From contig NZ_JARXRM010000028.1 of the NCBI RefSeq assembly GCF_029887875.1, forward strand, positions 136,611 through 200,610: DNA of 64,000 nucleotides. The letters run 5' to 3'. Shown here in pieces: positions 46,798 to 63,965 of the stretch; within the stretch, counting starts at the first letter, position 1; each line of letters starts with the position of its first letter. Source of the stretch: Luteimonas endophytica. Its GTDB lineage: Bacteria > Pseudomonadota > Gammaproteobacteria > Xanthomonadales > Xanthomonadaceae. Below the pieces are notes generated by a model. It did not search any database. It was not told where the DNA came from and saw nothing but the letters and a program-made list of their open reading frames with translations. The translations under genes and the position numbers were made by a program.

Positions 46798-47931
46798 ATG
46801 ATCCCAAAAAAGGTTATGGTCGTTTTCGGCACCAGACCGGAAGCAATCAAGATGGCCCCGGTGGTAGCGGTACTCCGCGCTATCTCGGGTATTGATACAT
46901 TGGTCGCAGTAACTGCGCAGCATCGGGAGATGCTCGATCAGGTGTTAACGCTTTTCGAGATCGCACCCAACATCGATCTCGACGTAATGCGTCACGGCCA
47001 GACGCTGCCCCAGGTTTTCGGCCGTATCCTCGAAGGTATGTCGAGTGCACTCGCGGAACACCGTCCCGATCTGGTTTTAGTTCACGGCGATACCAGCACT
47101 ACTCTGGCCGCCGCACTCGCCGCACTCTATTCCAAAATCCCTGTAGGACACGTTGAAGCGGGTCTACGGACTGGAGACATCCATTCACCTTGGCCGGAAG
47201 AGGCCAACCGTCGGCTCACCGCTCCTCTGGCAGAACTGCATTTCGCGCCTACCGAGCGGGCCGCGCGCAATTTGCTGGCCGAGGGCATCGACGAATCGCA
47301 AATTCACATAACGGGCAATACAGTCATCGACGCTCTACTCGACGTGGTCGCTCGGCTTGAGGAGCGGCCAGATTTAGCGACGCGGCTGGCCTGTCAGTTT
47401 CCGTTTATCAATCCTGACAAGCGGCTCATCCTGGTGACCGGCCATCGCCGCGAGAGCTTTGGGCACGGTTTCGAGCAGATCTGCCTTGCATTGACCGACA
47501 TCGCTGCCCGAGAGGATGTGCAAGTGCTTTATCCGGTACATTTGAATCCGAACGTGCGCGAACCGGCAAACCGTATCCTCTCGCGTCATCCCAGGGTAAG
47601 GCTCATCGAGCCACAGGATTACCTTCCCTTCGTCTATCTAATGTCTCGTGCTCACGTGATCCTTACCGACTCGGGAGGCGTTCAGGAAGAAGCGCCGTCA
47701 TTGGGCAAACCGGTACTGGTAATGCGAGAGACTACAGAACGACCGGAGGCGGTGGATGCGGGTACCGTGCGCCTGGTCGGCACCTCCCGTGAGCGCATCG
47801 TATCCGAAACCGTGCGACTGCTCGATGACATTCCGAGGTACCAGTCGATGGCTCAAGCGCACAACCCCTACGGTGATGGGGAAGCCGCTCGTCGCATCGG
47901 CCAAGTGGTCGCGGGATTTCTCCTAAGCTAA
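46798..47931 (+). CDS. wecB: UDP-N-acetylglucosamine 2-epimerase (non-hydrolysing)
   Basis: Interconverts UDP-GlcNAc and UDP-ManNAc. The protein has 377 residues: [15 protein letters not shown] at the N-terminus, [26 protein letters not shown], the Glu/His active-site region [11 protein letters not shown], and [20 protein letters not shown]+C is lower than in etfA (one 60-base line, 47281-47340, is 50 % by my count) and codons ending in A/T are common, suggesting acquisition by transfer. With WecC, encoded in the opposing operon, it would give UDP-ManNAcA. Confidence 0.95.
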
Positions 47932-54622: not shown

Positions 54623-57600
54623 TCATCGGACATGAGCTGGCTCTCCCCCGCGCTGCTGTCCAGCGTCCAGCAACCCGAGCAGTTCATTCGCGATCCTGTC
54701 GAAGCCATAGCGACCTACGACAATCGCCCGATTCTCGCGGGCCACGGCATCGCGCTCCGCGAGGCTCATTCCAATGAAACCCAGCACCCGATCGCATGCT
54801 TGCGCAACATCCTCCACCACCCACTCGCCGGCGTAGACGCGCTCGGCTCCTGGCCAAGGCCAGACCACGGGGAAGCACCCGCTGAGCACGCCATCGGCAA
54901 GAGCATAGTGGAACGATTCCGACTCGCTGCATGAAAGCACCACGTCGATGCCCTTGTACCAGCGAGCAACGTCGTTCCCCCAGGGCGCGAACCCGACCCG
55001 GTCCCGCAGCCGCGGGTCGCTGTCGATACGGGCATACTGTCGGTGGTAGAACTCCAGCTCGTCGCGTCGACCCGGTGCCTGCATGAACTCGAGCGTCTCC
55101 GGGCGATGGCCTTTCAGTTCGAGTCGCGCATCCACGCCCCGCTCGACCAGCGCCGCGAGCAGATCCAATGCCCTGTCGAAGCGCTTGAGCGTCGGCACAA
55201 TGCCGACCATCCCGAGCACCACTCTTTCTTCGTTGAGCAGCCTGCCCTCCAGTGTGTACTCCTGGTCGAGGACATAGTTGGGAATCACATGAGTCTTTTC
55301 CTCAGGCCAGCCCCAGAGCTCGAGGGCCCTCTCGCGGATCGTGTCCGAAACGAAGACGAACGCATCCACTGCCTTTGCGTCGATCTCGGCGCCAAACCTC
55401 CTGGCGCGTTCCCGCACCTCTTGCGCATGCACGCGAACCACCAGTCGTTTGCCCTCGGGCAGGTGCTTCGACGCCCATGCTGCGTTCGCCAGCCCCCATT
55501 CGCAAAACAGGACATCCGCGCGGCCGGCGAGCACCGCACTCGTCGTTTCGTCCCTACTTCTCCCCCAATCCCATCTGTCGCATAGAATGCGATGGCCAGC
55601 TGCCTTCGAACGCGAGACGAAGGCGTCGATAAACTTCATGTCATGGCCCGCAATGACGGTGGTACGACCATCAAGGCACTCGGGGTCCGGAAGAAGTCGC
55701 GGCCCGACCCGCTCCACCACGGCATCGAAGCCGTGCTTCGTCGAGATGCGTCTGGATAGATCGATCGGGGGTTCGCACCATCGCGGCGCCCGCACGATCT
55801 GCATGAACCCGTCGTAGCCGCTTATGAAGAACGGGTAGTCTTCCCCGAGTGTGACGCGGTTGATGTCGCTCGGGTGGCAGATACACCGCGCGCCCAGCGA
55901 AGCCATCTCGACGAGCTTGGTGGAGAGTTCGATCGTCAGCTCTTCGAATCTCGCGGGGCGGTAGCACCAGACGAAGTCCATCCGGGACATCAACTCCATC
56001 GACGCCAGCCGGTTGAAGTCGGTGTAGTGGCGCACCCCAAGCCTTTGGATACGGTCGAGCACCTCTCCACGCAGGTGCTCATAGCCCGGCTCGGGGCCGT
56101 TGCTGATCTTGTTGGCGACGATGTGCAGTTCTATCTGCAGCCCCTCGGCGATGGCACGCTCCGACCAATCGAGCAGCTCGATCACCCCCCAGCGGGAATT
56201 CACCTTCCCGGCATAGCCTATCCGGACCACGCCATCATCCGGCGACGGCCGAAGAGATACCGGGGGCATGTCGACGGGCACGACTGGAGGCAGTTCCACC
56301 GAACGGTATTCGCCCGCGATGCTCCGCAGGACCCCTTCTATTTCCGGCGTCTGCACCAGTACCGCCTCGGCGTGCGCCAGGCAGCTGCGCACCATGGCGA
56401 CCTGCGCCTCGCTCGAGATGCGTTCGCCCGCAAGCACAGAGTAGAAATCGGTGAGGTACACCGCTGCCCGGCCATCGAACTGTCGATCCGCCAGCAGAGC
56501 ATCGGCCGCCTCCAGGCCTCTCACGACCACGCGCCTGGTTCCCGGCACGAGAGCATCGACCTCGCGAACCACCTTGATCGCATCCTGCATACTGAACTGG
56601 ACCATGCCGGCGAACACCGAGGGATCGAGCACAATTAGGTTCTCGGGGTTGCGCACGTTCGACAGGACGACCGGCTGGGTCACCGGGACCTTGGACACCA
56701 GAATGCAAGGGCCTCTCGAGCAGAGGATGGAAGCCATGGTGGACAGCCAGACCGAGGATCCATCCACGATGTTGAGATTGATGTCGGCGTACAGGATCGA
56801 AGCTGCGTCGTCCGCCCTCGCTTGGCTCGATATCCATTGCAGGAGCGTCGATGAAAGATCGTCGGGCAACCTGGCTGGCATCTCACTCGTCGCGCCGCCG
56901 GCCACGGCGGGGTTGAGCCGCCTGGCGATTCCGCGCCTGGCAAGACGAAGCAACCTGACCGGCAGCCTGAACGCTCCATCCAGAGACGTCATTGCCCGGA
57001 TCAACGCCAGTCCCAGCTGGAAGGCGGTGCTTTCCTCCAACTCTTTGTTGCGAATCTCGTGGCTCGTCATCGCGTGACGCAGATGGCGTATCTGCCTGCC
57101 GCGTTGCTCGACTTCCTGGTGCAGCGTCTCGATCTTCTCGGCGTGGAAGGTTTCCAGGTCGCGCCGCATCTGCGCTTCCCTGCCGGACGCCAGTTCCTCC
57201 ACCCGGGCGAGCGCCTGTTCAAGGCGCCCGACCGCGATCGTTCCGGCGCGCTCTCGCTGATCCTCGCGAGATGCCTGCTCCTGCAGCGCGGAGGACAACG
57301 TCTTGCCCGCTTCGTTGAACGCGGACGTCAAGGCGGAGATCTTTTCGTCCACGGCAGCCAGTGCCGCAGCGTCCGCCACCGGAACGGCCGCCTTGCTTGG
57401 CGACCCCGGCTGCGGATCGGAGAGCTTGCGCTCGAGCTCGACCACCCGGGCTTCGGCCGCGCGCTGGAACCTGCGAGCACGCCGCAGCAGCACGTGATAC
57501 CGGTACTCCTGGATCACTTCCCGCGACATGAGGCGTTCGAAACGCTCGTCTGTTTTGCACGCCTCGATAGGGCGGAAAAGATGCGTCGGGGTGGCGTTGA

Positions 57601-58243
57601 ACGTCTCCCAATACCCGTAGCCATGCTGAAGCATCCACCGAGAGAGACGGCGGAAGCTCGCTTCGTCTTGGGACTCCACATAGACCAGCGGACGATCTCG
57701 CGCTATCAGGTTCGCGGCACCTTCCAGCACGTCCAGTTCCATTCCCTCGACGTCGATCTTGATCATCGCGACAGGCGCGTCGAACTCGATCTCGTCCAGC
57801 GGCAGGACCTCGATATCGCCCTCTCCGATCGCGAGCGCCTGCGCACCGAGGTTGTCTGGCCGGTCCTGGGATATACGCGCCACCCCGCGGGACCGCCCCA
57901 ACCCGCAAGCACGTACATCTACCAAGCGTCCCAGCAGGTTCAACGTGGCTGCCTCGACGATCGCCTCCGCCAACCCCGATTGCGGCTCGAATGCAACGAC
58001 CCTCGCGCCCCCGATCGCCGCAAGATAGATCGCGTGGTTCCCGATGTTGGCGCCGACATCCAGGACCAAGTCGCCAGGCGCGATCCTGGCCGCCATGTCC
58101 TGGAGCATCTCCTCCTCGTACGGCTTTCCGGACTCGTGTATGAGCTTCTGCAGATAGTCGGTCTCCGCATCCGGAAGGACGAGGAGATAACTCCCGCATC
58201 CGTCGGTGGTACCGACCCGGCGAGCCCGCTCGAATGCCGTCAT
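54623..58243 (-). CDS. FkbM methyltransferase / coiled coil / double glycosyltransferase fusion
   Basis: Giant protein of 1206 residues. Residues 55-230 are an FkbM-type methyltransferase (DLVLDVGANIGNHAIYLAA at 58-76, then MIKIDVEGMELDVLEGA at 160-176). Residues 255-410 are a long charged, coiled-coil-like region (ERKLSD, LEQALARVEELASGREAQMR, LHQEVEQRGRQIRHLRH). Residues 470-840 resemble a GT-B enzyme (VVRIGYAGKVNSRWGVIEL at 672-690; ELTIELSTKLVEMASLGA at 768-785). Residues 860-1195 form a second GT-B/GT4 unit (VVLGMVGIVPTLKRFDRALD at 1008; SESESFHYALADGVLSG at 1106). The start overlaps the wecC stop in ATGA. It could both build and methyl-cap the chain. Confidence 0.85.
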   Translation of the reverse strand: MTAFERARRVGTTDGCGSYLLVLPDAETDYLQKLIHESGKPYEEEMLQDMAARIAPGDLVLDVGANIGNHAIYLAAIGGARVVAFEPQSGLAEAIVEAATLNLLGRLVDVRACGLGRSRGVARISQDRPDNLGAQALAIGEGDIEVLPLDEIEFDAPVAMIKIDVEGMELDVLEGAANLIARDRPLVYVESQDEASFRRLSRWMLQHGYGYWETFNATPTHLFRPIEACKTDERFERLMSREVIQEYRYHVLLRRARRFQRAAEARVVELERKLSDPQPGSPSKAAVPVADAAALAAVDEKISALTSAFNEAGKTLSSALQEQASREDQRERAGTIAVGRLEQALARVEELASGREAQMRRDLETFHAEKIETLHQEVEQRGRQIRHLRHAMTSHEIRNKELEESTAFQLGLALIRAMTSLDGAFRLPVRLLRLARRGIARRLNPAVAGGATSEMPARLPDDLSSTLLQWISSQARADDAASILYADINLNIVDGSSVWLSTMASILCSRGPCILVSKVPVTQPVVLSNVRNPENLIVLDPSVFAGMVQFSMQDAIKVVREVDALVPGTRRVVVRGLEAADALLADRQFDGRAAVYLTDFYSVLAGERISSEAQVAMVRSCLAHAEAVLVQTPEIEGVLRSIAGEYRSVELPPVVPVDMPPVSLRPSPDDGVVRIGYAGKVNSRWGVIELLDWSERAIAEGLQIELHIVANKISNGPEPGYEHLRGEVLDRIQRLGVRHYTDFNRLASMELMSRMDFVWCYRPARFEELTIELSTKLVEMASLGARCICHPSDINRVTLGEDYPFFISGYDGFMQIVRAPRWCEPPIDLSRRISTKHGFDAVVERVGPRLLPDPECLDGRTTVIAGHDMKFIDAFVSRSKAAGHRILCDRWDWGRSRDETTSAVLAGRADVLFCEWGLANAAWASKHLPEGKRLVVRVHAQEVRERARRFGAEIDAKAVDAFVFVSDTIRERALELWGWPEEKTHVIPNYVLDQEYTLEGRLLNEERVVLGMVGIVPTLKRFDRALDLLAALVERGVDARLELKGHRPETLEFMQAPGRRDELEFYHRQYARIDSDPRLRDRVGFAPWGNDVARWYKGIDVVLSCSESESFHYALADGVLSGCFPVVWPWPGAERVYAGEWVVEDVAQACDRVLGFIGMSLAERDAVARENRAIVVGRYGFDRIANELLGLLDAGQQRGGEPAHVR

Positions 58244-59496
58244 CGTCCCTTCCCTCCAAGTATTCCGGTGAAGTCAAGCACTTCGCTTCCATCAAACAGA
58301 CCGGCTTCCTTGAAGGCATCGTGCGCCACCAAGATCACGTTCAGGTCGGCGCTCTCGAGCGCATGGCGCAAACCCACCAGTTCGACACCCTGCAGTTCAC
58401 TGGCGCCCGTCTCGATATGCGGCTCGACCACGAATACCTCGGAGTTCAGCGCGCCGGCCAGTTCAGAGACCACCTCGATGGCCGGACTCTCGCGAAGATC
58501 GTCGATGTTGGGTTTGAAGGCGAGCCCGTAACACGCCACGCGCATCTGCCCAGGCTCCCTCCCGGACGCGACCGAGAGACCGGCCAGTTCATCCAAGATG
58601 CGTTGAACCACCCAGTGCGGCTTTCCGTCGTTTACCTCCCGCGCCGTCCGGATCAACCGCGCTTGGCGCGGGCTTTTCGACACGATGAACCATGGATCGA
58701 CGGCGATGCAGTGCCCACCCACCCCGCAGCCTGGCCGAAGAATCTCGACACGCGGGTGGCGGTTGGCCAGCCGTATCAGCTCCCACACGTCGATCCCGAG
58801 GTCGTCGCAGATGATGGACAATTCGTTCGCGAACGCGATGTTGACGTCGCGATATGCGTTCTCGGTGAGCTTGCACATCTCCGCAGTCCGTGCGCTGGTC
58901 GTGACGAGCTCGCCTTCGACGAAGGTCCGGTAGAGCTCCTTTGCCCGTTCGGAACAGGTGGGAGTCAGCCCGCCAATCACGCGATCGTTCTCCACCAATT
59001 CGCGCACTACGTGTCCTGGCAAGACGCGTTCCGGGCAGTAGGCGACGTGTACGTCTGTTTCGCCCCCATTTTCTACGGGGAACCTCAGGTCCGGACGTTC
59101 CGTCGCCATCCACTCGACCAAACGCTCTGTGGCGCCAACGGGGGATGTCGATTCCAGAATCACGACGTTACCCCTGGCGAGTACCTTTGCAACCGAGCGC
59201 GCGGCCGCTTCCACATAGGCAAGGTCGGGCTCGTTCCCATCCTTGAACGGAGTCGGCACGGCGATCAGGAAGGCGTCCGCCGGCTCCGGGGCGAGCGCCG
59301 CGCGAAGAAAGCCGCGCTGAACGCTGGTCGAAACCAGTGCATCGAGTTCCGGCTCGACGATATGGATCCGGCCGTCATTGACGGTGCGCACCACCACCGA
59401 ATTGGTGTCTACCCCAAGCACCTCGACCCCGCGCGACGCGAACATGGTCGCGGTCGGCAAGCCAATGTAGCCCAGGCCGATCACGGAAATCTTCAT
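58240..59496 (-). CDS. wecC: UDP-N-acetyl-D-mannosamine dehydrogenase
   Basis: Oxidises UDP-ManNAc to UDP-ManNAcA using NAD+. The protein has 418 residues: NAD site VIGLGYIGLPTATMFA, VAYCPERVLPGH typical of the WecC group, and catalytic C263 in CGVGGHCIAVDPWF. The start ATG at 59496 has GGAG upstream and overlaps the stop of the preceding glycosyltransferase (ATGA). Its substrate is made by WecB, encoded 10 kb away in the opposing operon. UDP-GlcNAc dehydrogenases are close relatives, so the exact sugar depends on that pairing. Confidence 0.9.
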   Translation of the reverse strand: MKISVIGLGYIGLPTATMFASRGVEVLGVDTNSVVVRTVNDGRIHIVEPELDALVSTSVQRGFLRAALAPEPADAFLIAVPTPFKDGNEPDLAYVEAAARSVAKVLARGNVVILESTSPVGATERLVEWMATERPDLRFPVENGGETDVHVAYCPERVLPGHVVRELVENDRVIGGLTPTCSERAKELYRTFVEGELVTTSARTAEMCKLTENAYRDVNIAFANELSIICDDLGIDVWELIRLANRHPRVEILRPGCGVGGHCIAVDPWFIVSKSPRQARLIRTAREVNDGKPHWVVQRILDELAGLSVASGREPGQMRVACYGLAFKPNIDDLRESPAIEVVSELAGALNSEVFVVEPHIETGASELQGVELVGLRHALESADLNVILVAHDAFKEAGLFDGSEVLDFTGILGGKGR

Positions 59497-61187
59497 GCTT
59501 TGCTCCAGTTGGAAGGACATACATCAGCGCGGGTCGAAGGATATTCCGCGGCCATGAAGGCGGGCATCGAAGCTCCGCTCCCACCTTGCGCATACGAGAA
59601 CGCATCGATGGAAACATATGCATCCGTGGCATGCCCACCCTGTTCGGCAAGACCGATGGATTGCAGGGTACTGTTGCCCGGCCATACCCTGGCCCTGGCG
59701 AGGGATCTGCGCAGCGGTATCGGCCCGCAATGGGTGTACTCGGCTTCGGTACCCTGCTGCTCCAGTGCCGCTCCGTCCCAGTGATAGTACGCCCCCTTCC
59801 CGACCGCGTTCCCGGCGTACGAGCCGGCCGCCAGACAAAGGTCGAGGAGATAATGTGGACCGTACCAGTCCATTGGAGACCAGTAACCTAGTAGCGTATC
59901 GCCACCGAGCAGCTCGCTCAGCGGAGCCGAAAGCTGGTCTGCGGTGAGGCGACGGACACCTCGGCAGGGCTCCACCCCATCGGCAACCCAGGCGACGGCT
60001 TCTCCGCACACGCCACGCTGCGACTCCAAGAAGGCGGCCAGGCGTGCCATCTCGCCCGCGTCAGCAACTCTCGCCACCATGGCGACCTCCGGCTGGCGCA
60101 GTTCGTCGCGCCCTGCGATGCGACCGATCAGCATCGCCAGCCTGGCACTCCACGAGTGCCTGCCCACCGCGGCCCGCACACCCAGCGCACGCGTGAGTCG
60201 GCGCGACATGGACGCAGGTTCACTGTACTCGCGCCGCGCCTTCTCGGCGATTCGCTCGCGCCGACTGAACTGTTCTACCAGCCCCGGGAAAAACTCGCCG
60301 AGGGCGCGGCAAGGGTTGCTGTACACCGTGGTGCCGCAGGCCAGCATCTCCACGGCCCGCCTGGCGAACATGGTGGGCGAGTCAGTTACCGTGTTTATCG
60401 ACAGTCCGATCGAGTAGCGGCGGTAGATATCTCCGATGCGCGCGTAGTCCACTGCCGGATAAAGTGCGTCTGCGAATCTGTCTGGATAATCTCCGATCTC
60501 CGGTGGTCCAGGTCTGCGATAGACATGAAAAGGGCCGGCATCCATGAGTCCCTCGGCAAGCTCGCTGAATTCGGCGCACCGTCGGGGAAAATTGCCATAC
60601 CACGCCCCAGCGAAGAAGGAAGCGCGCTCCCTAGGACTCGAGGAGAGCGGGTTGTGCAGCCGGGGCTGGACCGGGAAAGTCATGACCCCCAGGCGGTCGT
60701 GTCGCAGTTCGCGTCGATAGCGCGAAATCGAGCCGGCGTCCGTTGTGAACACCCAGTCGAACAACTTCGCCGTCGCCAGAAAATCGTCGAGATGGACCGG
60801 GTCTTCCTTGGCCCAGAAGACCGTTGGGATACCTGCATGGCGGCAGAATCGCACGAGCCTGGTGACGACTTCGCCGCCTCCGGTCACCAGTCCCCGCCAC
60901 TGCCCGGCGCATCCGGACCAGCAGGACTCCACGAAAAGCAGCTGCGGCCGTGTCTTCTGGACCTGCAGCCGCCAGATCTTCGGGGAAAGGAACGTCGCCT
61001 CGCATTCTGGTGCGAGACCCAGGCCTGTGAACTCGTCGCAGACGACTGCGACCCGGAGGTCGGTTGCCGGCCGCAAGTGCCTAGGATCGACCGGGCTCAT
61101 CCGGGAGGCGCTGATTGCGTCGCCGACGCGGACGATACGCCGGGCAATGGCGGCCGCAGCCCGGGTTGTCAACCCAGGTTCAACCAT
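59493..61187 (-). CDS. CgeB-like GT-B glycosyltransferase with C-terminal extension
   Basis: Protein of 564 residues. The N-terminal 370 residues follow the CgeB/Glyco_trans_1_2 plan: LRVAVVCDEFTGLGL, LLFVESCWSGCAGQW, IPTVFWAKEDPVHLDDFLAT, FDWVFTTDAGSISRYRREL, RYSIGLSINTVTDSPTMFARR and EMLACGTTVYSNPCRALGEF. The last 190 residues resemble the tail of such enzymes that acts on rhamnan-like chains (LLGYWSPMDWYGPHYLLDL). Acceptor and donor unknown. The ATG at 61187 is preferred over a GTG eight codons upstream. Overlaps wecC by four bases. Confidence 0.75.
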   Translation of the reverse strand: MVEPGLTTRAAAAIARRIVRVGDAISASRMSPVDPRHLRPATDLRVAVVCDEFTGLGLAPECEATFLSPKIWRLQVQKTRPQLLFVESCWSGCAGQWRGLVTGGGEVVTRLVRFCRHAGIPTVFWAKEDPVHLDDFLATAKLFDWVFTTDAGSISRYRRELRHDRLGVMTFPVQPRLHNPLSSSPRERASFFAGAWYGNFPRRCAEFSELAEGLMDAGPFHVYRRPGPPEIGDYPDRFADALYPAVDYARIGDIYRRYSIGLSINTVTDSPTMFARRAVEMLACGTTVYSNPCRALGEFFPGLVEQFSRRERIAEKARREYSEPASMSRRLTRALGVRAAVGRHSWSARLAMLIGRIAGRDELRQPEVAMVARVADAGEMARLAAFLESQRGVCGEAVAWVADGVEPCRGVRRLTADQLSAPLSELLGGDTLLGYWSPMDWYGPHYLLDLCLAAGSYAGNAVGKGAYYHWDGAALEQQGTEAEYTHCGPIPLRRSLARARVWPGNSTLQSIGLAEQGGHATDAYVSIDAFSYAQGGSGASMPAFMAAEYPSTRADVCPSNWSKA

Positions 61188-61237
61188 GAGAGCTTTCCCG
61201 GCCCTCTCCACCAGCTGCCGAATGTGCCCCCTGCACC

Positions 61238-61993
61238 CTAAGGTTCCTGTTTGATCAGCGTTCGATAGGTCGAGATCACCTCGTCGACCTCCCCCAGTTG
61301 GACCAGCCGCCCCTTCTCCAACAGGATCGCTTTATTGCAGACGCTGCGCAGCAGCTGCGCGTTGTGCGAAGCCAACATTACGATCTGAGCGCTATCCACC
61401 CGTGAACGCATGCGTTCCTTTGCCTTCTCTACGAAAGCAGCGTCGCCTGTACCGATCCATTCATCCATGATGAGGATCTGGTGTTCGCTGGCGGTGGCGA
61501 TCGAGAAGCCCAGCCGCATTTTCTGCCCCGAGGAGAGAGTACGCAATCTGTCGTTGGCCTTTTCCTCGAGCTCGCCGAACGCAAGTACATCATCGACCAG
61601 TCCCACCGCCTCTGCGGGCTTTCGGCCCATGGCGATCGCCCGCAATATGATGTTCTCGACCAGAGTCGCCTCGGGGCTGAAACCAAGCGATAGATTCAGC
61701 AGCGCCTGCCGCGTTCCGGCCACGCTCAGCGTTCCGCGCGACGGCGGATAGGCGCCCACCAGAACCTTCAGCAGAGTTGACTTTCCGGCCCCGTTCCGAC
61801 CGATCACTCCGACCCTGTCACCGGGCAAGAGTTCGAAGCTGACATCGTCCAGCGTGGTGCGAAGCTCCCGCTTCGGCGGAAGGAACGCGGCCTTGAGGAA
61901 CAGGCTCAGCGAGGCGCGAGTACTGCGCTGGTCCTGGGTGTAGACCGGCAAGTCGAGGCCTATGCGGTCGGCCCGGATATGGACGTCTTTCAT
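61238..61993 (-). CDS. wzt: ABC transporter ATPase for polysaccharide export (short Wzt)
   Basis: ATP-binding subunit of 251 residues for export of a lipid-linked polysaccharide. Walker A GRNGAGKST, signature LSSGQKMRLGFSIA, Walker B ILIMDEWIGTGD and H-loop ASHN are intact. FLPPKRELRTTLDDVSFEL before Walker A is typical of Wzt/TagH/KpsT proteins. The product ends about 250 residues in and so lacks the C-terminal carbohydrate-binding domain that long Wzt proteins use to recognise capped chains. The start overlaps the wzm stop (ATGA). Confidence 0.93.
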   Translation of the reverse strand: MKDVHIRADRIGLDLPVYTQDQRSTRASLSLFLKAAFLPPKRELRTTLDDVSFELLPGDRVGVIGRNGAGKSTLLKVLVGAYPPSRGTLSVAGTRQALLNLSLGFSPEATLVENIILRAIAMGRKPAEAVGLVDDVLAFGELEEKANDRLRTLSSGQKMRLGFSIATASEHQILIMDEWIGTGDAAFVEKAKERMRSRVDSAQIVMLASHNAQLLRSVCNKAILLEKGRLVQLGEVDEVISTYRTLIKQEP

Positions 61994-62784
61994 ACCCACA
62001 CCGGCACGAAGCGTGCGTACCGCCGATAGACCAGCGCGGCCGCGAGCCAGCCGATGACCAGCAACCCGATGACGTAGGCGATGGTGAACGGCTCCAGGGA
62101 CTCTCCCAGAATGGGAGCACGAACCAACTCGACGAAATGAAAGAGCGGATTCGCCCGCGCCACCGATCCCCGAAACGTTCCCGCAGGCACTTGTTCGGCG
62201 GTCCAGATGATGGGGGTGAACAGAAATCCGAACATCATGATACTGCCGATGAACTCGTACACGTCGGTCAGCCGTGCGCCGATGATGGCCACGATCGCGG
62301 CCATCCACCCCACGTTGAGCAAGAGCAGCAGCATCGAAGGCAACAGCGTCACCAAGCCAAGCGGTTCGAACGTCGGGCTGATCCACAGGGCCAGCGCAAC
62401 GACCGGAATCGTGAATACCAGATAGAAGCCGGCTTTCGCCATCACCCTGAGCATGTAGTCCGTCAGCCTGACTCTGCCATCGAGGATGAAGGCCGCGTGG
62501 TGGGCGCAGGTAGTGGTGGATTCGTTGAGGGACACCGTCACGAAACGGAAGAGCACATAGCCGATTGCCATGTGGGGGATGAACGATGCAATGTCGTACC
62601 CTTGCAGACGGGCGAAGAATCCGCCCACCACGAAGGCGTAGAGAAACGGGGGCAGGAACACCCAGAACAGTCCGAGGCGGGAACGGCGGTACTTGGTGAC
62701 CAGCTCCAGCCAGGTTGAGTAGATCCAGAACTCCGGCCGGCGCAGGCTCTCGGCGTAATCTCCCAGCAGGGACCTACCCTTCAT
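61990..62784 (-). CDS. wzm: ABC transporter permease for polysaccharide export
   Basis: ABC-2-type permease of 264 residues with six hydrophobic segments (for example LGLFWVFLPPFLYAFVVGGF and LLPSMLLLLLNVGWMAAIVA). The N-terminal amphipathic stretch EFWIYSTWLELVTKYRRSRLG is the gate-helix region of Wzm/KpsM proteins. It works with Wzt. Its ATG overlaps the metB stop (ATGA), showing that the export genes are co-translated with a methionine-biosynthesis gene. Confidence 0.93.
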   Translation of the reverse strand: MKGRSLLGDYAESLRRPEFWIYSTWLELVTKYRRSRLGLFWVFLPPFLYAFVVGGFFARLQGYDIASFIPHMAIGYVLFRFVTVSLNESTTTCAHHAAFILDGRVRLTDYMLRVMAKAGFYLVFTIPVVALALWISPTFEPLGLVTLLPSMLLLLLNVGWMAAIVAIIGARLTDVYEFIGSIMMFGFLFTPIIWTAEQVPAGTFRGSVARANPLFHFVELVRAPILGESLEPFTIAYVIGLLVIGWLAAALVYRRYARFVPVWV

Positions 62785-63965
62785 CCAAGAGCCCCGACGA
62801 GATCGGCCTGCAGGTCCTCGATCTCCTCCACCCCCACGCTCAATCGCACCAGGTTCGCATCGATCCCGAGCTGCGCGCGGCGCTGCTCCGGCACCGAGGC
62901 GTGCGTCATCACCGCCGGGTGGTTGACCAGGCTCTCCACCCCGCCGAGCGACTCGGCCAGGGTGAACAGCTCGGTCCGCTCGCAGAAACGCTGCGCCGCC
63001 TCGTATCCGCCCTTCAGCCAGATCGAGACCATCCCGCCGAATCCATCCATCTGCCGCTTCGCGAGTTCGTGCTGCGGATGCGAGGCGAGACCTGGATAGG
63101 CCACCTTTTCGACCACCGGGTGGCCCTCCAGCCACTCGGCCAGCGCCTGCGCGTTGTCGCAGTGCGCACGCATCCGCAAGTGCAGGGTCTTGAGCCCACG
63201 CAGGGCCAGGAAGCTGTCGAACGGGCCCTGCACGGCACCGATCGAGTTCTGCAGAAAGGCCAGCTGCTCGGCCAGTTCGGCGTCGTCGCCCACCACGGCC
63301 ATGCCGCCGACCATGTCGGAATGGCCGTTGAGGTATTTGGTGGCCGAATGCACCACGATGTGCGCGCCCAGCGCCAGCGGGCGCTGCAGGATCGGCGAGC
63401 AGAAGGTGTTGTCGACTACCACGATCAGGCCGCGCTTGCGGGCGAGTTCCGCGATCGGCGCGATGTCGACCAGCTTGAGCAGCGGGTTGGTGGGGGTCTC
63501 GATCCAGACCATGCGGGTCTGGGGGCGGATCGCGGCCTCGAACGCCGCCGCGTCGCTCAGGTCCACCCAGCTGAAGTCCAGCCCGGCCGAACGCCGCCGT
63601 ACCCGCTCGAACAGCCGGTAGGTACCGCCGTAGACATCGTCCATGGCGATCACGTGGCTGCCGGAATCCAGCAGTTCCAGCACCGTCGAGGTCGCCGCCA
63701 TGCCGGAGGCGAAGGCATAGCCGCGGCTGCCGCCTTCCAGGCCGGCCACGCAGCGCTCATAGGCGAAGCGGGTGGGATTGTGGCTGCGCGAGTACTCGAA
63801 CCCCTGGTGCTCGCCCGGGCTGCGCTGGGCGTAGGTGGAGGTCGCGTAGATCGGCGGCATCACCGCGCCGGTGCTGGGGTCGGGCGACTGGCCGGCGTGG
63901 ATGGCCAGGGTGCCGAGCCCCCGGGGTTCCGGCCCGGCGTCGGCCGCGCGGCGGTCGTCCGTCAT
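62781..63965 (-). CDS. metB: Cystathionine gamma-synthase / gamma-lyase
   Basis: PLP enzyme of 394 residues of transsulfuration. PLP lysine K210 lies in HSATKYLNGHSD, with YSRSHNPTRFAYE and the phosphate loop FASGMAATST also present. Synthase and lyase activities are not separable by eye; annotations in Xanthomonas use metB for this gene at the right border of the lipopolysaccharide locus. It is the first gene of the minus-strand operon leading into wzm. G+C is back to chromosomal level. Confidence 0.93.
   Translation of the reverse strand: MTDDRRAADAGPEPRGLGTLAIHAGQSPDPSTGAVMPPIYATSTYAQRSPGEHQGFEYSRSHNPTRFAYERCVAGLEGGSRGYAFASGMAATSTVLELLDSGSHVIAMDDVYGGTYRLFERVRRRSAGLDFSWVDLSDAAAFEAAIRPQTRMVWIETPTNPLLKLVDIAPIAELARKRGLIVVVDNTFCSPILQRPLALGAHIVVHSATKYLNGHSDMVGGMAVVGDDAELAEQLAFLQNSIGAVQGPFDSFLALRGLKTLHLRMRAHCDNAQALAEWLEGHPVVEKVAYPGLASHPQHELAKRQMDGFGGMVSIWLKGGYEAAQRFCERTELFTLAESLGGVESLVNHPAVMTHASVPEQRRAQLGIDANLVRLSVGVEEIEDLQADLVGALG

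What the first reader, a model, noticed from the sequence alone, without database searches (positions are those of the whole stretch)
54623..58243. FkbM methyltransferase fused through a coiled coil to two glycosyltransferases: candidate self-terminating chain builder
Seen: FkbM motifs at residues 58-176, a charged heptad-rich stretch at about 255-410, and two GT-B-like units at about 470-840 and 860-1195 in one 1206-residue frame, in the same operon as wzm and wzt. Known: in ABC-exported O-antigens (O9a type) WbdD caps the chain by methylation and its coiled coil measures chain length, while a separate enzyme polymerises. Inference: here polymerisation and methyl capping may be joined in one protein, with the coiled coil as spacer. 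A complication is that the adjacent Wzt is short and lacks the domain that normally reads the cap.
Basis: partly seen in the sequence, partly recalled or inferred. Interest (0 to 1): 0.72.

Follow-up and report, generated by a model that had tools for sequence, protein, structure and literature searches.

The report
Sugar-chain builder with built-in methyl cap
One bacterial protein appears to build a surface sugar chain with two enzyme units and to finish it with a methyl group added by a third unit held away on a long helical arm; such all-in-one proteins are known, but this one uses another kind of methyl enzyme and works beside an exporter with no part for reading the cap.

Summary
The gene is on the minus strand: FkbM methyltransferase (residues 1-230), two long helices (231-275, 290-404) with a break between, a basic amphipathic helix (405-445), and two GT-B glycosyltransferases (478-853, 859-1199). 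It ends a tightly packed wzm-wzt-GT-wecC gene run in a locus flanked by etfA and a metB-like gene.

One protein that polymerises and caps is already proven (K. pneumoniae O7 ORF6, O12 WbbB), and WsaE joins a methyltransferase to two GTs, so this is a new variant, not a new kind.

For a ruler: in 8 homologues the FkbM and GT modules keep their lengths while the rod varies from 98 to 174 residues; among 116 GT-core relatives 14 of 15 methyltransferase heads carry a rod, against 5 of 101 other heads.

In 63 related loci, capper-rod-GT fusions (FkbM, class I methyltransferase or pyruvyltransferase) were found in 10 of 29 with a short Wzt and 0 of 32 with an extended one; standalone capper-rod proteins (mostly sulfotransferase-like) in 11 of 32 extended and 0 of 29 short. 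This rests on few evolutionary events. Export is probably not cap-gated here.

The parts
54623..58243 (-). whole gene, 1206 aa: FkbM methyltransferase + helical rod + amphipathic helix + two GT-B units
   Evidence: ORF; Pfam and NCBIfam; two models
57554..58243 (-). FkbM methyltransferase head, residues 1-230 (Pfam match 62-209)
   Evidence: PF05050 E 4.5e-16, TIGR01444, best solved structure 2py6 by sequence and by fold
57419..57553 (-). first helix of the rod, residues 231-275 (60% mean identity among 8 homologues)
57032..57376 (-). second, continuous helix of the rod, residues 290-404; variable in sequence and length among homologues
   Evidence: length and identity; weak heptad signal
56909..57031 (-). 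conserved basic amphipathic helix, residues 405-445 (40-41 residues in all 8 homologues), likely membrane contact
   Evidence: hydrophobic moment up to 0.49, net charge up to +7 in an 18-residue window
55685..56812 (-). first GT-B unit, residues 478-853; no Pfam match, no canonical EX7E (E772-x6-E779)
   Evidence: fold match to SenB and WaaG; motif read from the alignment
54647..55669 (-). second GT-B unit, residues 859-1199, GT4-like
   Evidence: PF13439, fold match to BshA
58240..59520 (-). wecC-like UDP-N-acetyl-D-mannosamine dehydrogenase, overlaps the start of the FkbM gene by 4 bases
   Evidence: NF008286 659.8 bits, cut-off 459
59493..61211 (-). separate glycosyltransferase (called GTx here), Glyco_trans_1_2; fused to capper heads in relatives
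   Evidence: fusions
61238..61993 (-). wzt, 251 aa, no C-terminal extension
61990..62784 (-). wzm, 264 aa
   Evidence: ABC2_membrane; overlaps wzt by 4 bases
62781..63965 (-). metB-like PLP enzyme, one flank of the LPS locus, overlaps wzm by 4 bases
   Evidence: PF01053, NF005871 above its cut-off
46798..47931 (+). wecB-like UDP-GlcNAc 2-epimerase on the other arm of the locus
   Evidence: PF02350
45807..46745 (+). etfA, the other flank of the locus
   Evidence: PF00766 and PF01012

Best explanation
A one-protein polymerase and terminator for an O-polysaccharide that probably contains ManNAcA. The amphipathic helix holds the protein at the membrane; the two GT-B units extend the lipid-linked chain there (the separate GTx may add a further linkage or start the chain). 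The FkbM unit sits at the far end of a helical rod and methylates the non-reducing end once the chain is long enough to reach it, which stops growth; the rod length sets the usual chain length. The short Wzt exports the chain without checking for the cap. Shown by computation: domain order, intact FkbM motifs, helical rod, short Wzt, wecB/wecC. Inferred: the substrate of the methyltransferase, termination, the ruler role, and cap-independent export.
For: Same layout as the proven O7 ORF6 (methyltransferase-kinase, coiled coil, two C-terminal GTs) (PMC11231755). Fixed module lengths (FkbM 228-231, amphipathic helix 40-41, GT core 714-718) against a rod of 98-174 residues (25% mean identity, 35% gaps) in 8 homologues. 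Rod tied to methyltransferase heads: 14 of 15 against 5 of 101 (4 of 120 proteins skipped). Heads of unrelated capping chemistry stand in front of rods in related loci: FkbM, class I methyltransferase, pyruvyltransferase fused to GTs, sulfotransferase-like standalone. ManNAcA: wecC in the gene run and wecB in the locus; in 13 loci of named genomes the GT core has both within 10 kb in 8 and wecC alone in 1. Cap-independent export: Wzt has no extension; the nearest Wzt kin split, L058 with a fused methyltransferase and L059, L060, L061 with none found.
Against: No chemistry is known for this organism. In the terminated Klebsiella systems described in PMC11231755 the Wzt carries a cap-binding module; here it does not. 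In O1, with a transporter that lacks that module, the terminal pyruvate does not set chain length. WsaE methylates independently of chain length in vitro. The window's rod is broken at 276-289 and its heptad signal is weak. Kin L067 has a diverged FkbM-like head without the usual motifs, so such heads can decay. The first GT unit lacks a canonical EX7E.
Confidence: 0.5

Rival explanations
1. End methylation that only varies the structure: the FkbM unit caps part of the chains, but length is set by the balance of polymerase and exporter, as in K. pneumoniae O1/O2a.
For: Short Wzt of the type that NCBIfam's galactan exporter model matches best (174.7 bits, below its cut-off of 400); the O1 precedent of a cap that the exporter ignores; closely related short-Wzt loci with no capper found.
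Against: It gives no reason for a long rod that goes with methyltransferase heads and that alone changes in length.
Confidence: 0.25
2. Internal modification: the FkbM unit methylates every repeat (or one sugar precursor), and the rod is only a tether.
For: FkbM enzymes are known to methylate many sugars (recalled). Some GT-core relatives carry other N-terminal domains with no rod.
Against: A tether for per-repeat methylation need not be a rod of 100 residues or more; pyruvyltransferase and sulfotransferase heads at the same place look more like end caps.
Confidence: 0.17
3. The head no longer acts, or serves only as a structural part of a membrane-bound polymerase complex.
For: Diverged heads exist in kin: L067, and by weak profile match L079 and L083.
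Against: In the window and its 7 full-length homologues the FkbM domain is as conserved as the GTs (57% mean identity against 55% and 60%), and the motif residues are invariant in 42 sequences.
Confidence: 0.08

Closest known systems
K. pneumoniae O7 ORF6 (PMC11231755: abstract, passages and part 1 of the discussion seen)
   Same: N-terminal methyltransferase, coiled coil, two C-terminal GT modules in one protein, in a wzm/wzt cluster; terminator shown in vitro there.
   Different: O7 needs a kinase and caps with methyl phosphate; its methyltransferase resembles CgnL, not described as FkbM; its GTs are GT2 modules, here GT-B; it has an extra CBM-like fold in the terminator. The paper says that terminated systems have a CBM on Wzt; here there is none.
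K. pneumoniae O12 WbbB (same paper, passages)
   Same: One polypeptide polymerises and terminates, with a coiled-coil ruler between.
   Different: Caps with beta-Kdo by a GT99 unit, not by methylation; its transporter reads the cap.
G. stearothermophilus WsaE (PMC2943079, passages)
   Same: N-terminal methyltransferase and two GT domains in one protein, in a cluster with wzm and wzt.
E. coli O9a WbdD/WbdA (PMC11231755 passages)
   Same: Cap enzyme separated from the polymerase by a coiled coil near a membrane helix.
   Different: Cap enzyme and polymerase are separate proteins; WbdD has a kinase; Wzt has a cap-reading module.
K. pneumoniae O1/O2a exporter (PMC11231755 passage)
   Same: Exporter without a cap-reading module; O1 chains may still carry a terminal group.
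   Different: There the cap is not needed for length and no coiled-coil capper is described in the passage.

Membership tests
Coiled-coil chain terminators of ABC-exported O-polysaccharides (WbdD, WbbB, O7 ORF6) | Capping enzyme at the distal end of an extended coiled coil | tested here: inconclusive
   FkbM then helices 231-275 and 290-404; heptad signal weak in this protein, clear in five of six homologues tested
Coiled-coil chain terminators of ABC-exported O-polysaccharides (WbdD, WbbB, O7 ORF6) | Polymerase modules on the other side of the coil, in the same protein or recruited | tested here: met
   Two GT-B units at 478-853 and 859-1199
Coiled-coil chain terminators of ABC-exported O-polysaccharides (WbdD, WbbB, O7 ORF6) | Encoded with wzm and wzt | tested here: met
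Coiled-coil chain terminators of ABC-exported O-polysaccharides (WbdD, WbbB, O7 ORF6) | Cap-reading module on Wzt | tested here: not met
   Wzt has 0 residues beyond the aligned domain; Wzt_C PF14524 absent from the genome and the extension type of related Wzt absent too, with matches in 2 control genomes that had supplied rows
Coiled-coil chain terminators of ABC-exported O-polysaccharides (WbdD, WbbB, O7 ORF6) | Terminates chains; coil length sets chain length | not testable with these tools
   needs enzyme assays and glycan analysis
FkbM methyltransferases | Match above curated cut-off and kept SAM motifs | tested here: met
   PF05050 59.9 bits (cut-off 22.7), TIGR01444 79.5 (37.7); invariant columns
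GT-B / GT4 glycosyltransferases, second unit | Pfam match and fold | tested here: met
GT-B / GT4 glycosyltransferases, first unit | GT-B fold; Pfam match; EX7E motif | tested here: inconclusive
   Fold like SenB and WaaG; no Pfam match; E-x6-E instead of EX7E by eye
WsaE-type proteins | Sequence homology to WsaE | not tested
Group 2 capsule systems (KpsC/KpsS) | Capsule_synth PF05159 in the genome | tested here: not met
   with matches in 2 of 14 control genomes

The most novel reading that the evidence does not exclude
In these loci there are two ways to make sure that only finished chains reach the surface. Cap chemistry (methyl by two enzyme families, pyruvyl, perhaps sulfate) is exchanged freely on the same rod.
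Probability: 0.25. Interest if true: 0.75.

Novelty: new variant of a known kind. Interest (0 to 1): 0.55.

Why it matters
How bacteria set the length of surface sugar chains is settled in a few enteric systems where the exporter reads a cap. Here a capper-rod-polymerase fusion works beside an exporter with no reader, and natural relatives offer matched sets: different rod lengths, the same GTs with and without the head, and different cap chemistries. That makes the question whether the rod alone can set length, without an export check, directly testable. It also points to sulfotransferase-rod and pyruvyltransferase-rod-GT proteins as candidate terminators; I found no paper on them in my searches, but the most relevant survey (Mann et al. 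2019) is not held.

Tried and rejected
Capsule reading: the GT core also occurs beside wecB/wecC and short Wzt/KpsT-like proteins in several genomes, but this genome has no KpsC/KpsS domain and the locus has LPS-locus flanks, so capsule was set aside.

PF14524 as the test for the cap reader: rejected as a sole test, because none of 5 extended Wzt of this family matched it either. The extension was instead defined by length and by its own profile A5 (29 of the 32 extended Wzt, leaving out L071, L102 and L114). That profile matches no known Wzt domain in the PDB, only an amidase at E 1.2e-5, so it is not shown to be a carbohydrate-binding module. L102's extension looks different to me from the others and L071's ends early.

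My first coiled-coil score did not separate rods from GT cores (about half of 120 GT cores reached 0.50) and was dropped. The second rule (runs of 45 or more residues) still fires in 19 of 120 GT cores, so single rods found by it are weak evidence; in L068 most of the rod runs are shorter than 45.

Searches for the GT core in 369 genomes of the class and 398 of the phylum found only the window's own at E <= 1e-60. In 150 relatives, 49 (own included) matched some part of the protein, none but the own over its whole length. Fisher's p for the fusion/Wzt table (2.8e-06) ignores kinship; on the Wzt tree (quick method, 20 of 60 inner branches starred) the Wzt types need only 3-4 changes, and starred branches force only 1-2, so I do not rest on that p. 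The same caution holds for the p. The solved-structure search with the 803-aa neighbour found nothing.

Full report

Surroundings. The minus-strand run is metB-like, wzm, wzt, GTx, wecC, FkbM-GT-GT. By the ORF ends, neighbours overlap by 4, 4, 28 and 4 bases, with one gap of 26 bases between wzt and the listed start of GTx. Wzt is 251 aa. A wecB-like gene stands on the other arm next to etfA. PMC2238763 (passages) says that sequenced xanthomonads have a variable LPS locus between metB and etfA, with wzm and wzt first on the metB side; the window has that layout. No KpsC/KpsS-type domain is in the genome.

Homologues. A database search listed 120 of 215 matches. Seven besides the window have the full layout with one FkbM head (P0002-P0008). 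Aligned with the window, their FkbM parts are 228-231 residues, the amphipathic part 40-41, the GT core 714-718, and the rod 98-174; mean pairwise identity is 57% in FkbM, 55% and 60% in the GTs, 60% in the first helix, and 25% with 35% gaps in the rest of the rod. The other listed relatives share the GT core with other N-terminal parts: none, beta-type domains, extra GTs, or a methyltransferase of another family. Taking the 116 of 120 whose core was placed and whose head has at least 60 residues, 14 of 15 with a methyltransferase head have a rod of 45 or more residues and 5 of 101 without one do. The exception is P0037, which has two methyltransferase domains. The rod rule has false positives (19 of 120 GT cores), about what the 5 of 101 would give; relatedness makes the p value (4e-13) too small.

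Sugar. In 13 loci of named genomes that encode the GT core, wecB and wecC both lie within 10 kb in 8, wecC alone in 1, neither in 4. I infer UDP-ManNAcA as one donor. A background rate for wecB/wecC was not measured.

Related loci. In 345 genomes of the family, 72 (the window's own included) have a Wzt match at E <= 1e-55. I examined 61 of the 72 (the window, L054, L055 and the 58; left out were 2 near contig ends and the 9 lowest scoring), plus L056 and L057, which came from the GT-core search and so were chosen differently: 63 loci, each with about 18 kb downstream of wzt where the contig allowed. The Wzt C-terminal extension is under 50 residues in 29, 110 or more in 32, and a Lys/Ala-rich tail in 2. 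Capper head plus rod plus GT in one protein: 10 of 29 short loci, namely the window, L054, L068 (FkbM), L055, L056, L058, L064, L065 (class I methyltransferase), L062, L098 (pyruvyltransferase PF04230); 0 of 32 extended. Without L056 and L057 it is 9 of 27. Capper plus rod without a GT: 11 of 32 extended, 0 of 29 short: ten sulfotransferase-like (Pfam Sulfotransfer_3 above its cut-off in L070, L072, L084, L088, L091, L092, below it in L074, L082, L085; L073 by my own profile only) and L089 (Methyltransf_24). 19 short and 21 extended loci had no capper-rod that my four head profiles or Pfam found; among the extended, 17 further proteins from 14 loci scanned with Pfam showed no methyltransferase, pyruvyltransferase or sulfotransferase head joined to a GT, but not every protein was scanned. 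L086 has a rod protein whose head Pfam does not know.

Natural contrasts. L054 has wzt 58% and wzm 52% identical to the window's, then wecC, then FkbM (43%), rod, GTx and another GT in one 1605-aa protein. L059, L061, L063 and L104 have GTx plus a GT (1191-1263 aa) and L060 a 2104-aa multi-GT protein, all without a methyltransferase by Pfam. On the Wzt tree the window groups with L058, L059, L060, L061 (starred); L058 has a fused methyltransferase, the other three have no capper found. Within the short Wzt the fused state needs 7 changes. So closely related exporters serve loci with and without a capper, which speaks against a cap-gated exporter.

Cap reader. The window genome has no PF14524, but that model misses this family's extension (0 of 5). 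A profile of 29 extensions finds nothing in the window's genome, G067 or G088 and matches in G1152 and G1067, which supplied rows to it. The profile hits no Wzt structure in the PDB, so calling it a cap reader is inference.

Known systems. PMC11231755 (abstract, passages, part 1 of the discussion) shows O7 ORF6 with methyltransferase, kinase, coiled coil and two GTs as terminator and polymerase, O12 WbbB as a Kdo version, says that the terminated examples have a cap-binding module on Wzt, and that the O1/O2a exporter lacks one and exports chains with and without pyruvate. [quoted passage not shown] Full-text searches for FkbM with coiled coil, Wzt or chain termination listed no paper on such a protein; they cover open-licence PMC papers only, and the survey of Mann et al. 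2019 is not held.

Verdict. A new variant of a known kind: FkbM as capper, GT-B polymerase, no reader on the exporter. It works like the O7 and O12 proteins; it fails one feature of the terminated systems (a cap reader on Wzt), so I do not file it with cap-gated export. The exchange of fused and standalone cappers with short and extended Wzt is the most interesting observation, and rests on few independent events.

Noticed in passing
L070:2653-5241, L072:4177-5970, L084:2668-4617, L088:4162-5922, L091:4000-6042, L092:9994-11877: Sulfotransferase-like domain followed by a long rod in standalone proteins beside an extended Wzt: candidate sulfate chain terminators. Not found in the papers searched.
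   Followed up: partly
L062:6548-12541, L098:6842-11191: Pyruvyltransferase (PF04230) + rod + glycosyltransferases in one protein beside a short Wzt.
   Followed up: partly
L067:10251-13016, L079:12028-14676, L083:3646-6288: Heads that look like decayed FkbM (L067) or, by weak profile match only, decayed class I methyltransferase (L079, L083), still followed by a helical stretch.
   Followed up: partly
window:52192-54606 (+): 804-residue protein convergent with the FkbM gene; no Pfam family at E 0.001, nothing in the solved-structure search.
   Followed up: partly
window:50601-52037 (+): 478-residue protein, apparently membrane-bound by its sequence, with no meaningful Pfam match.
   Followed up: no
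window:48088-48714 (+): Small standalone class I methyltransferase in the same locus; another possible source of methylation.
   Followed up: no
L072:2170-2664 and other C-terminal ends of extended Wzt: About 110-residue domain with GW and RxDV...GF motifs on Wzt; matches an amidase structure weakly and no known Wzt domain.
   Followed up: partly
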